DNA of 36,084 bases, taken from the NCBI GenBank assembly GCA_003221985.1, contig QHUQ01000126.1, positions 1 through 36,084 on the forward strand. Reading direction: 5' to 3'. Position 1 is the first letter of the stretch, and each line of letters opens with the position of its first letter. The notes under the pieces are model-generated. The model made no database searches. It had not been told where the DNA came from and saw only the letters and a list, made by a program, of their open reading frames with translations. Positions 21,401 to 36,084 of the stretch are shown here, one piece after another. The DNA is from Gemmatimonadota bacterium. Lineage in GTDB: Bacteria; Gemmatimonadota; Gemmatimonadetes; Gemmatimonadales; GWC2-71-9. The translations under genes and the position numbers were made by a program.

Positions 21401-22444
21401 ATGCAACTCGATTCGGTGCTCGAAGGGCTGGCGCGCGGTGACACCACCGCTCTCGCCCGTGCCATCAGCCTGGTCGAGAACCAGCGCGAGGGCTTCGAGC
21501 GCGTGTTGTCGGAGCTCCATGCGAAGATCGGGAAGGGAAACACCCAACGCATCGGGATTACCGGGCCGCCCGGGGCGGGAAAGAGCACCCTCACCGAGCA
21601 GCTGGTCCGCGCTTATCGCGAGCGTGGCCTCAAAGTCGCAGTCATCGCGGTGGACCCCACCAGCCCGTTCACGGGTGGCGCGCTGCTCGGCGACCGGATC
21701 CGGATGGAGTCGGTGAGTCTCGATCCGGGCGTCTTCATCCGGTCGATGGCGACGCGCGGCGCCCAGGGTGGTCTCGCCACCACGACCGAAGAGGTCGCGG
21801 ACGTGCTCGAGGCCTTCGGGTTCGATCGCATTCTCATCGAAACGGTCGGAGTGGGCCAGACCGAATTGGACGTCGCCGCCACCGCCGAGACGACGGTGCT
21901 GGTGCTCGTTCCCGAGTCGGGCGACGGCATCCAGACGCTCAAGGCCGGGGTCATGGAGATCGCCGAGCTGTACGTGATCAACAAGAGCGATCGCCCGGGG
22001 GCGGATAAGTTGAAGCAGGAAGTGGAAGTGATGCTGGGGATCCGGCGGGGCAATGCGTTCGTCAATGTCAAACCGCATCACCGACCAATGGCGGCGAAGG
22101 GCGGCGCAGGGCGGCGAGGTGAGGCGGCGGCAACTGCCGACTCGTGGGAGCCTCCTGTCCTAACGACCGTGGCTTCGAAGGGTGAGGGGATCGGCGAGCT
22201 CATCGGTGCCCTTGATCGCCACTACGAACACTTGATGAAAAGCGGCAAACTCGAAGAACGCAGAAAACGACGTCTGGCCACCCGCACGCGGGCGGTCGTG
22301 AACCGCGCCATCCGCCAATGGGTATGGGACGCGACACAGGCGGAAGACCTGCTGGCACGGCGGCTCGATGATGTCGCCGCCGGGACACGCAGCCCGTATG
22401 ACGTCGCGGCGGAGGTCCTGGAGCAAGTGAGGAACGGCAAATGA
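21401..22444 (+). CDS. meaB: MeaB/ArgK-type GTPase, chaperone of a B12-dependent mutase
   Basis: G3E GTPase that loads and protects adenosylcobalamin mutases. Walker [17 protein letters not shown] near residue 54, [22 protein letters not shown], the switch [24 protein letters not shown] and VINKSD (base specificity) are all present. It has 347 residues from ATG 21401. GTG 21371, overlapping the mgtE stop, is an equally open in-frame alternative. Between HHRP and SWEPPV about 18 extra residues ([17 protein letters not shown], bases 22088-22144) form a low-complexity insert. It overlaps the mutase gene by 4 bases, which fits the chaperone role. Confidence 0.94.
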
Positions 22445-25426: not shown

Positions 25427-25465
25427 TCACACGCACGACGCACCACGCACGACCCACGGCCGTTC
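25427..25465. repeat. Low-complexity spacer rich in CACGCACGAC units
   Basis: The 39-base gap before the carboxyltransferase is made of imperfect CACGCACGAC / ACGACC units. It shows no clear ribosome-binding site or hairpin. It resembles the CGAC-rich tract inside trpA and, more loosely, the tandem repeats at the right end of the window. Confidence 0.45.
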
Positions 25466-34793: not shown

Positions 34794-34829
34794 ACGGGAT
34801 AGGACGGCATGCGCTGCGAGGCGGACATT

Positions 34830-34859
34830 GTTATAAACGGGACCCGACAAGTCAAGCAA
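34830..34859 (-). promoter_or_regulatory. Candidate promoter of the membrane protein / VWA unit
   Basis: On the minus strand TTGCTT (34859-34854) and TATAAC (34835-34830) are 18 bases apart. TTGACT (34855-34850) overlaps the -35. This is the most AT-rich spot of the divergent gap, about 50 bases before the start codon. Confidence 0.5.
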
Positions 34860-34931
34860 AAGGTTCGTGATGAGCATCACCGGAGCCTTGCGACTTGCGC
34901 AAAATGCCCAGTCGAGGCTACTCATCTCGGT

Positions 34932-35303
34932 GTGCCGGATGACCCCAAACGCTTGATCGTCGTCGGCGACCGCGTACTGATCGCTCCCGAGGAGGGAGAG
35001 GAGCGGACCAACGTCGGCCTCTATTTGCCCCCTTCGGCCATCGAAGGGCGGCAGGTGCAAGGTGGGCGTATCGTCGCGACGGGCCCGGGGACTCCCATGG
35101 CCGAACCTGCCAGCATGGACGAGGAGCCCTGGAAGATCCACGGCGGCGGCGCCGAAGTGAAATACCTCCCCATGCAGGCCGAGACGGGGGACTACGCGCT
35201 GTTCTTCCGGAAAGCCGCCGTGGAAATCACATTCGAAGAGAAGACCTATCTCGTCGTGCCACAGGCTGCGATACTCGTACTCGTGCGAGGAAAGCATGGC
35301 TGA
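34932..35303 (+). CDS. GroES-like co-chaperonin fold protein
   Basis: 123 residues from GTG 34932. The opening RLIVVGDRVLIAPEEGEERTNVGLYLPP, the glycine-rich GGRIVATGPG and the closing YALFFRKAAVEITFEEKTYLVVPQAAILVLV follow the Cpn10 barrel. True GroES is about 95 residues with a mobile loop. Here about 25 extra residues (MAEPASMDEEPWKIHGGGAE) are inserted after the GTG-P turn. No groEL is adjacent, so it may be a paralogue with a different job. The start is uncertain, since the open frame continues upstream to 34809 but without family similarity. It overlaps the next gene by 8 bases. Confidence 0.8.
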   Translation: MPDDPKRLIVVGDRVLIAPEEGEERTNVGLYLPPSAIEGRQVQGGRIVATGPGTPMAEPASMDEEPWKIHGGGAEVKYLPMQAETGDYALFFRKAAVEITFEEKTYLVVPQAAILVLVRGKHG

Positions 35304-35613
35304 CATGGGGTGGGCCCGCAGTCGTGGAGATCGCGCCGAAGGGCAGGGACTGCGGCGCGGCGCCTGGTATCGCGTCGTCGAAAACCCGCAGAAGGATTAC
35401 GTCGTCGTCGACGTGCATCACGTCGAGATTCGGGTCCCCAAAGGGGACCTCGAAATCCGGGGACAGCGCCCCACTACTTGGAGCGTCGTCCGTCAGCCAC
35501 ACCTCGTTTGTCCTGGTTGTGCCTCTCGCGCGGTCATTCCCGAAGGAATGAAAGACGCCAAATGCAACGAGTGCGGCCGCGCCTACCCGATTGACTGGAA
35601 GGATGCCGGCTAA
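35296..35613 (+). CDS. Small zinc-ribbon protein
   Basis: 105 residues. A C-terminal zinc ribbon (CPGCASRAVIPEGMKDAKCNEC) with two CxxC pairs about 15 residues apart follows a beta-rich N-terminal part (WYRVVENPQKDYVVVDVHHVEIRVP). It is probably cytosolic and nucleic-acid or protein binding. No family name is certain. The ATG lies within the last codons of the GroES-like gene, so they are co-translated. It is the last gene before the tandem repeats. Confidence 0.78.
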   Translation: MADMGWARSRGDRAEGQGLRRGAWYRVVENPQKDYVVVDVHHVEIRVPKGDLEIRGQRPTTWSVVRQPHLVCPGCASRAVIPEGMKDAKCNECGRAYPIDWKDAG

Positions 35614-35617
35614 TGAG

Positions 35618-35692
35618 ACGACGGTAAGGGACGGTAAATAAAACGACGGTAAGGGACGGTAGGTAAAACGACGGTAAGGGACGGTAAGGGTT
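35618..35692. repeat. Three tandem 25-bp repeats (core acgacggtaagggacggta)
   Basis: Units start at 35618, 35643 and 35668. The first 19 bases of each are identical and the last 6 vary (aataaa, ggtaaa, agggtt-like). Within each unit ACGGTA recurs, giving a sub-period of about 10-12 bases. There are no unique spacers, so it is not a CRISPR array. The array fills the gap between the zinc-ribbon gene and the four-helix-bundle gene. On the minus strand it reads as a C-rich TACCGTCCCTTACCGTCGT series just after that gene's stop. Confidence 0.9.
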
Positions 35693-35708
35693 GGAACACC
35701 TCCTATCT
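35688..35708 (+). other. Sequence resembling the 3' end of 16S rRNA (anti-Shine-Dalgarno tail)
   Basis: The plus strand reads GGTTGGAACACCTCCTATCT. The 16S 3' terminus in bacteria reads GGYTGGATCACCTCCTTTCT. Only two positions differ (A for T in each case). The minus strand therefore carries a perfect AGGAGGTG Shine-Dalgarno right at the stop codon of the four-helix-bundle gene, but no start codon follows at usable distance. The similarity is seen directly. What it does is unknown. Confidence 0.55.
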
Positions 35709-36068
35709 CTTCACTGCTTTTGAAACGGCTCTATAAAGACGCCACGTCATGAGGCCGGCCCTACCACGCAGCGCGTCTAATCGATTCCAGTCCGCTTCTG
35801 ATAAGAGCTTGAGATCGCGAACCAATCGCAGAACGTAGGCGAGTTCTGCGAGCGATCCGATACTGATGTCGATGAATCGTCTGAACTCGGTCGAGCCTCG
35901 CTTGGCGGAGCCCTCGGCGAGGTTCACCGCCGCGGAAAATGCCGCCCGTCGGGCCTGCGACGTCAGACCGTAGAGTTCGTGCTTTGGGAAGGACGTAGTT
36001 GCGTCGTAAACGGCAAGGACCAGCTCATGACACAGCTTCCAAGCGTGCAGTCTTTCATGCGCGAGCAT
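35703..36068 (-). CDS. Four-helix-bundle protein (23S rRNA intervening-sequence / S23 family, Avd-like)
   Basis: 121 residues. ERLHAWKLCHELVLAVYDATTSFPKHELYGLTSQARRAA, SAAVNLAEGSAKRGSTEFRRFIDISIGSLAEL and the remaining helices are typical of the family first found as an ORF in 23S rRNA intervening sequences and related to the Avd accessory protein of diversity-generating retroelements. It probably forms a pentameric or similar helical bundle and binds nucleic acid. GC content is clearly below that of the neighbours, a sign of transfer. ATG 36068 has no clear ribosome site and the frame is open to the window edge, so the start could lie outside. Its stop lies inside the 16S-tail-like motif. 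Confidence 0.9.
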   Translation of the reverse strand: MLAHERLHAWKLCHELVLAVYDATTSFPKHELYGLTSQARRAAFSAAVNLAEGSAKRGSTEFRRFIDISIGSLAELAYVLRLVRDLKLLSEADWNRLDALRGRAGLMTWRLYRAVSKAVKR

Positions 36069-36084
36069 GAGGAAGTATTTCTGG

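What the first reader, a model, noticed from the sequence alone, without database searches (positions are those of the whole stretch)
35614..36084. Four-helix-bundle gene, tandem repeats and a 16S rRNA 3'-tail look-alike form one compact element
A low-GC S23/Avd-like gene, a copy of the 16S 3' tail and three 25-bp repeats lie end to end in a high-GC chromosome with no other mobile DNA. The protein family is historically linked to insertions in rRNA genes and to retroelement target mutagenesis. An rRNA-derived tail next to it suggests a small mobile or RNA-based element that recognises rRNA, or a non-coding RNA working with the protein. Seen: gene, repeats, motif, GC drop. Inference: that they are one unit.
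Basis: partly seen in the sequence, partly recalled or inferred. Interest (0 to 1): 0.78.

Follow-up and report, generated by a model that had tools for sequence, protein, structure and literature searches.

The report
Four-helix gene in repeat-hairpin element
A small bacterial gene of unknown role sits, in most of the relatives examined, between mirror-image arrays of very short repeats, and gene-less copies of such arrays turned up mostly in sampled genomes rich in the gene, which suggests a little-known kind of tiny mobile element.

Summary
The gene and the repeats are real and belong together; the 16S-tail motif is not part of the unit. The window holds one half of an element: an S23/IVP four-helix-bundle gene (35703-36068, minus) and its 3' repeat arm (35614-35687). 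The contig ends at the gene start, so the 5' arm is unseen; the ortholog L001 has it. In relatives the gene lies between two arrays of short (mostly 7-10-nt) tandem repeats, the 5' array being the reverse complement of the 3' array (score >=16 in 96 of 126 loci; 0 of 222 control positions). Units mostly differ between copies in a genome, usually drift together in both arms (36 of 44 same-site pairs) and track the protein (Mantel, 0 of 1000 permutations). Gene-less hairpin arrays are commoner in S23-rich than S23-free genomes of one order (17 hairpins against 1 in ~0.78 Mb each). The anatomy recurs in other phyla, on cyanobacterial plasmids and once inside a 23S rRNA gene. It resembles REP-RAYT organisation without a transposase. 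How it copies itself is inferred, not shown.

The parts
35703..36068 (-). S23/IVP four-helix-bundle gene, 121 aa, pI about 10.2
   Evidence: PF05635 and TIGR02436 matches; AlphaFold2 model, four helices, mean pLDDT 92; closest solved fold 2gsc, Foldseek E 1.8e-6; pI
35614..35687 (.). 3' arm of the element (relative to the gene): three 25-bp units with six GACGGTA cores; on the coding strand it reads CTTACCGTCCCTTACCGTC...
   Evidence: same unit in both arms of the orthologous element L001
35688..35702 (.). gene-to-arm spacer that contains nearly all of the 16S-tail look-alike (35689-35703); not conserved in relatives
   Evidence: 0 of 215 relatives
36069..36084 (-). first 16 bases upstream of the gene; the contig ends here, so the 5' arm is not in the window
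   Evidence: L001 carries four GACGGTAAGG units upstream; in relatives the 5' arm ends a median 78.5 nt (quartiles 45-96) before the start of the profile match
35296..35613 (+). host gene next to the 3' arm (105 aa, hypothetical), convergent with the S23 gene; marks the outer boundary
   Evidence: ORF; the same host gene borders the 3' arm in L001

Best explanation
The window carries one end of an 'S23 element': an S23 gene enclosed by two inverted arrays of short tandem repeats, so that the whole element can fold into a long hairpin with the gene in the loop. Shown in relatives: the inverted arms, their mostly copy-specific unit, their usual concerted drift, the correlation of unit with protein, filled and S23-free versions of host sites, both orientations at shared sites, and gene-less hairpins enriched in S23-rich genomes. 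Inferred: the very basic S23 protein (Avd-like fold) binds its cognate repeats as hairpin DNA or RNA and helps them anneal and be copied, by slippage and template switching on host replication or repair. That would lengthen the arrays, keep the two arms alike and seed copies at new sites without a transposase. The gene-less hairpins would be non-autonomous derivatives, as REPs are to RAYT genes.
For: Inverted arms: 96 of 126 loci at score >=16; cross-locus pairings 1.4% of 4000; control positions 0 of 222. Other samples: 25 of 28 (order of G001), 9 of 24 (phylum of G006, Bacteroidota), 18 of 25 (phylum of G012); controls 1 of 84, 0 of 72, 0 of 75; 11 of 16 plasmid loci, 15 of the 16 cyanobacterial. 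Mostly different units among the 11 copies of G001. Unit tracks protein at different sites: r 0.31, 0 of 500 permutations; within Gemmatimonadota r 0.28, 0 of 1000. Own arms more alike than orthologous arms in 36 of 44 same-site pairs. Filled against S23-free sites; 21 same-site pairs in opposite orientation. Gene-less hairpins of the window's own unit (L280, L281). Hairpin-paired arrays away from S23: 27 in 40 S23-rich stretches, 1 in 40 S23-free ones (17 hairpins against 1); genomes 6 of 10 against 1 of 12, Fisher p 0.02. Fold: 2gsc, then 2rld, then DGR Avd. pI about 10.
Against: No copying event was observed. S23 has no known catalytic domain, and binding to the repeats is untested. 24 of 126 loci score below 14; Bacteroidota arms are weak (9 of 24); no period could be assigned to 42 of 166 arm pairs. 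8 of 44 same-site pairs do not show concerted drift. 36 of 63 arrays away from S23 in 49 Gemmatimonadota loci are unpaired. The rich-versus-free contrast is not corrected for kinship; 14 of the 27 paired arrays come from one genome (G052), four of ten S23-rich genomes (G016, G038, G080, G089) show none, one S23-free genome (G058) shows one, and many contigs of the rich set were known from S23 listings. Of the 5 genomes with the window's unit, G001 and G053 carry a window-like S23 with matching arms, but the most window-like copies of G014 and G080 carry other units; G099 was not resolved.
Confidence: 0.55

Rival explanations
1. RNA-borne element: the two arms pair in the transcript, RNase III or another nuclease releases the S23 RNA, and a reverse transcriptase (own or borrowed), helped by S23 as Avd helps the DGR enzyme, copies it into new sites. 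rRNA intervening sequences are the cases that land in rRNA.
For: An S23 gene with inverted tandem arms inside 23S rRNA; published cutting of the Coxiella IVS by RNase III in vitro and its 28-bp terminal stem (PMC4990558, passages read); S23 fold resembles DGR Avd.
Against: A reverse transcriptase (PF00078) is found in only 8 of 101 genomes of the order of G001, while S23 is in 83 of 101 (completeness of the assemblies not given); G001, which holds the window's ortholog, shows none. Mismatches between arms show no significant excess of G-U-compatible changes (224 against 190, p 0.10).
Confidence: 0.2
2. Not mobile by itself: S23 is a resident gene whose message is framed by a stem that regulates or insulates it; slippage and quasipalindrome correction by ordinary replication make the tandem arms and keep them alike.
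For: Same host neighbour for the window and L001, as expected of vertical retention; tandem repeats and quasipalindromes are known to homogenise (recalled).
Against: S23-free versions of occupied sites, 3 to 13 PF05635 matches per genome in 12 genomes with mostly different units, both orientations at shared sites, gene-less arrays and hairpins of the same unit elsewhere.
Confidence: 0.2
3. One reading: a unit that recognises rRNA through an rRNA-derived tail next to the gene.
For: 3-mismatch match to a 20-base 16S 3' end, 0 expected by shuffling.
Against: Chosen after the fact; no counterpart in 215 relatives nor in the ortholog L001; no Rfam hit in the window.
Confidence: 0.02

Closest known systems
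rRNA intervening sequences (IVS) with S23 genes, e.g. Coxiella burnetii (PMC4990558, passages; PMC11270868, passages)
   Same: S23 gene in a loop closed by terminal inverted repeats; called a selfish element in the abstract of PMC4990558. A 23S-resident relative found here (L275, Azospirillum lipoferum 4B) has inverted tandem arms of the same kind as the intergenic copies.
   Different: The window copy is not in rRNA, and L275 was the only copy found in rRNA among the loci screened. Arms are arrays of short tandem units that vary from copy to copy; gene-less hairpins are dispersed. The IVS passages I read do not describe tandem arms.
REP-RAYT systems (PMC2817692, abstract and section 8 read)
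   Same: Gene flanked by two inverted cognate repeats; repeats co-vary with the protein; many gene-less copies.
   Different: RAYTs are tyrosine transposases of the IS200/IS605 type; S23 is a four-helix bundle with no transposase match. Repeats here are tandem arrays of mostly 7-10 nt forming arms, not single palindromes.
Orphan heptamer repeats: cyanobacterial STRRs (recalled; term searched, listing) and Xanthomonas GGGAATC arrays (PMC4692102, section 10 and passages read)
   Same: Intergenic tandem heptamers; in Xanthomonas 70 and 75 inverted pairs are reported. S23 genes on Nostoc-type plasmids are flanked by inverted heptamer arrays. The best PDB match to the window protein, Xcc0516, is from X. 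campestris, one of the two species of that study.
   Different: PMC4692102 does not mention S23, four helix or 23S rRNA in its main text. Whether Xanthomonas arrays flank its S23 gene was not tested here.
DGR accessory protein Avd (4dwl, 8ub7)
   Same: Same overall fold (Foldseek prob 1.00, TM about 0.73-0.80, though E 0.04-0.4).
   Different: About 10% identity; a reverse transcriptase, its partner in DGRs, was found in only 8 of 101 genomes of the order.

Membership tests
S23/IVP protein family (PF05635) | profile match above the curated cut-off | tested here: met
   95.5 bits against 33.8
S23/IVP protein family (PF05635) | four-helix fold of Xcc0516 type | tested here: met
   model pLDDT 92, four helices; 2gsc TM 0.88, E 1.8e-6
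rRNA intervening sequence (IVS) | located inside an rRNA gene | tested here: not met
   no rRNA match in the window; a relative, L275, does meet it
rRNA intervening sequence (IVS) | terminal inverted repeats around the S23 gene | tested here: inconclusive
   only the 3' arm is in the window; both arms present in the ortholog L001
rRNA intervening sequence (IVS) | excision from the transcript by RNase III | not testable with these tools
   needs RNA
REP-RAYT | tyrosine (IS200/IS605-type) transposase gene | tested here: not met
   the only Pfam match of the window protein at E <= 0.001 is PF05635
REP-RAYT | gene flanked by cognate repeats in inverted orientation | tested here: met
   in relatives, 96 of 126; in the window only one side is visible
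REP-RAYT | repeats co-vary with the protein | tested here: met
   in relatives: Mantel r 0.28, 0 of 1000 permutations, Gemmatimonadota
REP-RAYT | cognate repeats abundant where the gene is present | tested here: inconclusive
   for: hairpin-paired arrays 27 against 1, genomes 6 of 10 against 1 of 12, but any unit counted, kinship not corrected, half from one genome. Unit patterns concentrate in 5, 6 and 5 of 101 genomes; cognate S23 confirmed in some of these, not in all
Diversity-generating retroelement (Avd) | reverse transcriptase in the same system | tested here: not met
   no PF00078 match in G001, which carries the orthologous element; 8 of 101 genomes of its order have one; the window's other proteins were not scanned

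The most novel reading that the evidence does not exclude
S23 proteins are the non-enzymatic drivers of a transposase-free class of selfish elements. Each S23 lineage recognises its own short tandem repeat and makes hairpin arrays of it grow, stay matched and spread. Intergenic S23 genes, rRNA intervening sequences, cyanobacterial STRRs and orphan heptamer arrays such as the Xanthomonas ones would then be autonomous and non-autonomous forms of one element family.
Probability: 0.4. Interest if true: 0.92.

Novelty: new variant of a known kind. Interest (0 to 1): 0.8.

Why it matters
S23/four-helix-bundle genes are present in most genomes sampled here (a PF05635 match in 83 of 101 genomes of the order of G001, 30 of 41 of the phylum of G006, 25 of 39 of the phylum of G012), and their role outside rRNA is unknown to me. 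Short intergenic heptamer-type repeats are an unexplained feature of several bacterial groups. A cognate protein-repeat pairing would give both a common cause and make it directly testable: one protein, one repeat unit, one binding or amplification assay. It would also suggest that a small protein without a transposase can disperse sequence through a genome.

Tried and rejected
16S-tail component: rejected, 0 of 215 relatives. RNA-level selection on the arms by G-U asymmetry: not significant (141 against 117; 224 against 190, p 0.10). Reverse-transcriptase dependence: RT in 8 of 101 genomes, so it does not look obligatory in the sampled assemblies. Target-site duplication: none obvious in the compared pairs, but the flanks are only about 67-82% identical, so very short duplications cannot be excluded. 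More rRNA-resident copies: none found among the other loci by blastn with the L275 rRNA. Literature link between S23 genes and tandem arms: none found in the searches (open-licence library only; listings and the passages named). A first version of the arm statistics (87 of 123 at >=14) had faulty gene ends and its script stopped with an error; replaced. The rich-versus-free comparison was run on 20+20 stretches (15 against 0 paired arrays) and then enlarged to 40+40 (27 against 1).

Rows dropped: one search removed duplicates and 6 of 132 copies with short flanks. One search was given all 28 newly fetched loci of the order of G001, 27 Bacteroidota loci (3 short) and 26 loci of the phylum of G012 (1 short); L233, L234, L256, L257, L258 were not given to it. 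One search was given 12 of the 16 plasmid loci, leaving out L268 (close to L265) and the three low scorers L277-L279; with these four put back the count of arms at >=15 is 167 of 219 instead of 166 of 215. Of 30 plasmid records matched, 16 were fetched. Match lists were capped.

'Gemmatimonadales', 'Gemmatimonadota', 'Bacteroidota', 'Desulfobacterota', 'Chloroflexota' for these are my labels from the record titles of the loci behind the handles.

Full report
What is in the window. The last 790 bases hold a convergent pair: a 105-aa hypothetical gene on the plus strand (35296-35613) and a 121-aa gene on the minus strand (35703-36068). The latter is an S23/IVP protein (PF05635, E 2.6e-27; TIGR02436), very basic (pI 10.2). 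Its AlphaFold2 model is a confident four-helix bundle (pLDDT 92) whose nearest solved structures are Xcc0516 (2gsc), BT_0352 (2rld) and, with weak E-values but TM 0.73-0.80, DGR Avd (4dwl, 8ub7). Between the genes lie three 25-bp repeats, more than chance. The contig stops 16 bases before the start codon, so one flank cannot be seen. No genome is held for the window; the listed relatives with an organism name are Gemmatimonadota, as are the closest loci.

The hidden half. 63 related loci were fetched from named genome contigs. Downstream of the stop codon most show arrays of short tandem repeats with a unit that varies from locus to locus; upstream of the gene most show an array of the same unit in reverse complement. 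L001, an 86% identical protein next to the same host gene as in the window, has GACGGTAAGG-type repeats on both sides. So the window's repeats are most likely the 3' arm of an inverted pair.

Statistics. Over 126 distinct copies with both flanks, the 5' flank matched the reverse complement of its own 3' flank with score >=16 in 96; random cross-locus pairings did so in 1.4% of 4000, and gene-sized control positions in the same loci in 0 of 222. 24 of 126 scored below 14. A wider sample gave 25 of 28 (order of G001), 9 of 24 (Bacteroidota) and 18 of 25 (phylum of G012), with controls 1 of 84, 0 of 72 and 0 of 75. Among 16 plasmid-borne relatives, 15 of them cyanobacterial, 11 scored >=16, with heptamers such as CAGGAGT and GGGAGTA. 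Of 166 arm pairs the best period was 7 in 63, 8 in 25, 14 in 15, 10 in 12, 9 in 7, other in 2, and none in 42. The arms, read 5' to 3' towards the gene, are purine-rich in 143 of 166; because an inverted repeat reads the same on both strands, this is a polarity relative to the element's ends, not proof of an RNA.

The unit belongs to the element, not to the genome. In G001 the eleven copies have mostly different units; two copies in G011 share one. At different sites, similar proteins carry similar units in the same orientation (Mantel r 0.31, 0 of 500 permutations; within Gemmatimonadota r 0.28, 0 of 1000, and r -0.04 with GC similarity). At the same site in different genomes, the two arms of one element resemble each other more than they resemble the orthologous arms in 36 of 44 pairs, so the arms usually drift together.

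Mobility. S23 genes occur in 83 of 101 genomes of the order of G001, up to 14 matches per genome. Occupied and S23-free versions of one site can be compared: G001 C28 against L025, L011 (whose own arms are weak) against L021, G002 C76 against L013. No target-site duplication was obvious. At the coaX site 2 of 30 loci hold S23, in opposite orientations; 28 show none, two of which (L158, L159) are cut off by contig ends; three relatives with 84-85% identical CoaX are among the S23-free ones. Altogether 21 same-site pairs lie in opposite orientation, some with unrelated units and diverged proteins (independent insertions), others with similar ones (possible inversion). In cyanobacterial plasmids S23 genes sit between ribonucleotide reductase genes, cas6 and cas4, or cmr2 and cmr3.

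Gene-less copies. The window's unit, at up to one mismatch, occurs in 5 of 101 genomes. Some occurrences are hairpins with no S23 gene in the locus (L280, L281, L291, L293). Of the five genomes, G001 and G053 carry a window-like S23 with matching arms, while the most window-like copies of G014 and G080 have other units. In G011 and G012 the GCATAGRGCATAGRGCATAG pattern has 117 and 24 (partly overlapping) matches, against 0 for the reversed control; in G012, 14 of 16 arrays are far from the PF05635 genes, two of them around a short S23-like remnant. At the G002 C76 site, L029 has a solo hairpin array where G002 has a full element. In 49 Gemmatimonadota loci there were 121 tandem arrays (2 in shuffled sequence): 58 at S23, 27 hairpin-paired elsewhere, 36 unpaired. 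Finally, 40 stretches each from 10 S23-rich and 12 S23-free genomes of the same order held 27 and 1 hairpin-paired arrays away from S23 (17 hairpins and 1 when merged); 6 of 10 against 1 of 12 genomes (Fisher p 0.02), and arrays with a period not divisible by 3 differ too (46 against 5; p 0.0035 by genome). Against this: kinship was not corrected for, 14 of the 27 come from G052, and G016, G038, G080 and G089 are S23-rich without a hairpin in the sample.

Link to rRNA insertions. L275 (Azospirillum lipoferum 4B, plasmid AZO_p2) is 23S rRNA (RF02541) with an S23 gene and inverted tandem arms of the same kind. Published IVSs have S23 genes in stem-loops with terminal inverted repeats cut by RNase III (PMC4990558, passages), and 23S_rRNA_IVP genes are scattered over several rRNA sites in CPR bacteria (PMC11270868, passages). 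The rRNA cases are therefore probably members of the same element family that happen to sit in rRNA; this rests on one example here.

How it may work. The organisation resembles what was described for REP-RAYT (inverted flanking repeats, coevolution, abundance of cognate repeats; PMC2817692, abstract and section 8), but S23 has no transposase domain. RT is rare in the hosts (8 of 101), and G-U-compatible mismatches are not significantly enriched (224 against 190), so an RNA-and-RT route is possible but not favoured. The reading I prefer is that S23 binds its own repeats, single-stranded or hairpin, and promotes annealing and template switching, which would lengthen, match and seed arrays. That step is inference.

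The 16S-tail motif. It is a real 3-mismatch match to a 20-base 16S 3' end but is found in none of 215 relatives, so I treat it as chance.

What is new. I found no paper linking S23 genes to inverted tandem arrays in the open-licence library. The Xanthomonas and Nostoc heptamer paper reports inverted pairs of GGGAATC arrays and generally no association with mobile elements (PMC4692102, section 10 and passages); S23, four helix and 23S rRNA do not occur in its main text. Subscription journals and preprints were not searched.

Noticed in passing
L270, L271, L273 (cyanobacterial plasmids): S23 genes sit inside CRISPR operons (cmr2-cmr3, cas6-cas4); the 2013 report of IVP genes in cas loci (PMC3936711, passages) may reflect insertion rather than function.
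   Followed up: partly
L267: S23 element between two ribonucleotide reductase genes on a Nostoc edaphicum plasmid, with GGGAGTA heptamer arms.
   Followed up: no
L283, L284, L290, L293: A second palindromic repeat (GTAGGGGCGCAGCATGCTGCGCCCCTAC-like) lies beside solo arrays of the window's unit in three genomes (G080, G053, G099); possibly another REP-like family.
   Followed up: no
L326 (G012, around 2248248): Several arrays with different units lie within 800 bp around a small open frame, as if elements nest in each other.
   Followed up: no
window 34809-35303 (+): Co-chaperonin GroES-like (Cpn10) gene, two genes from the S23 gene; as called it has about 50 extra residues at the N terminus.
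   Followed up: no
window 22087-22117 and 25431-25458: Two short tandem arrays (period 10 and 7) elsewhere in the window, in regions covered by long ORFs.
   Followed up: no
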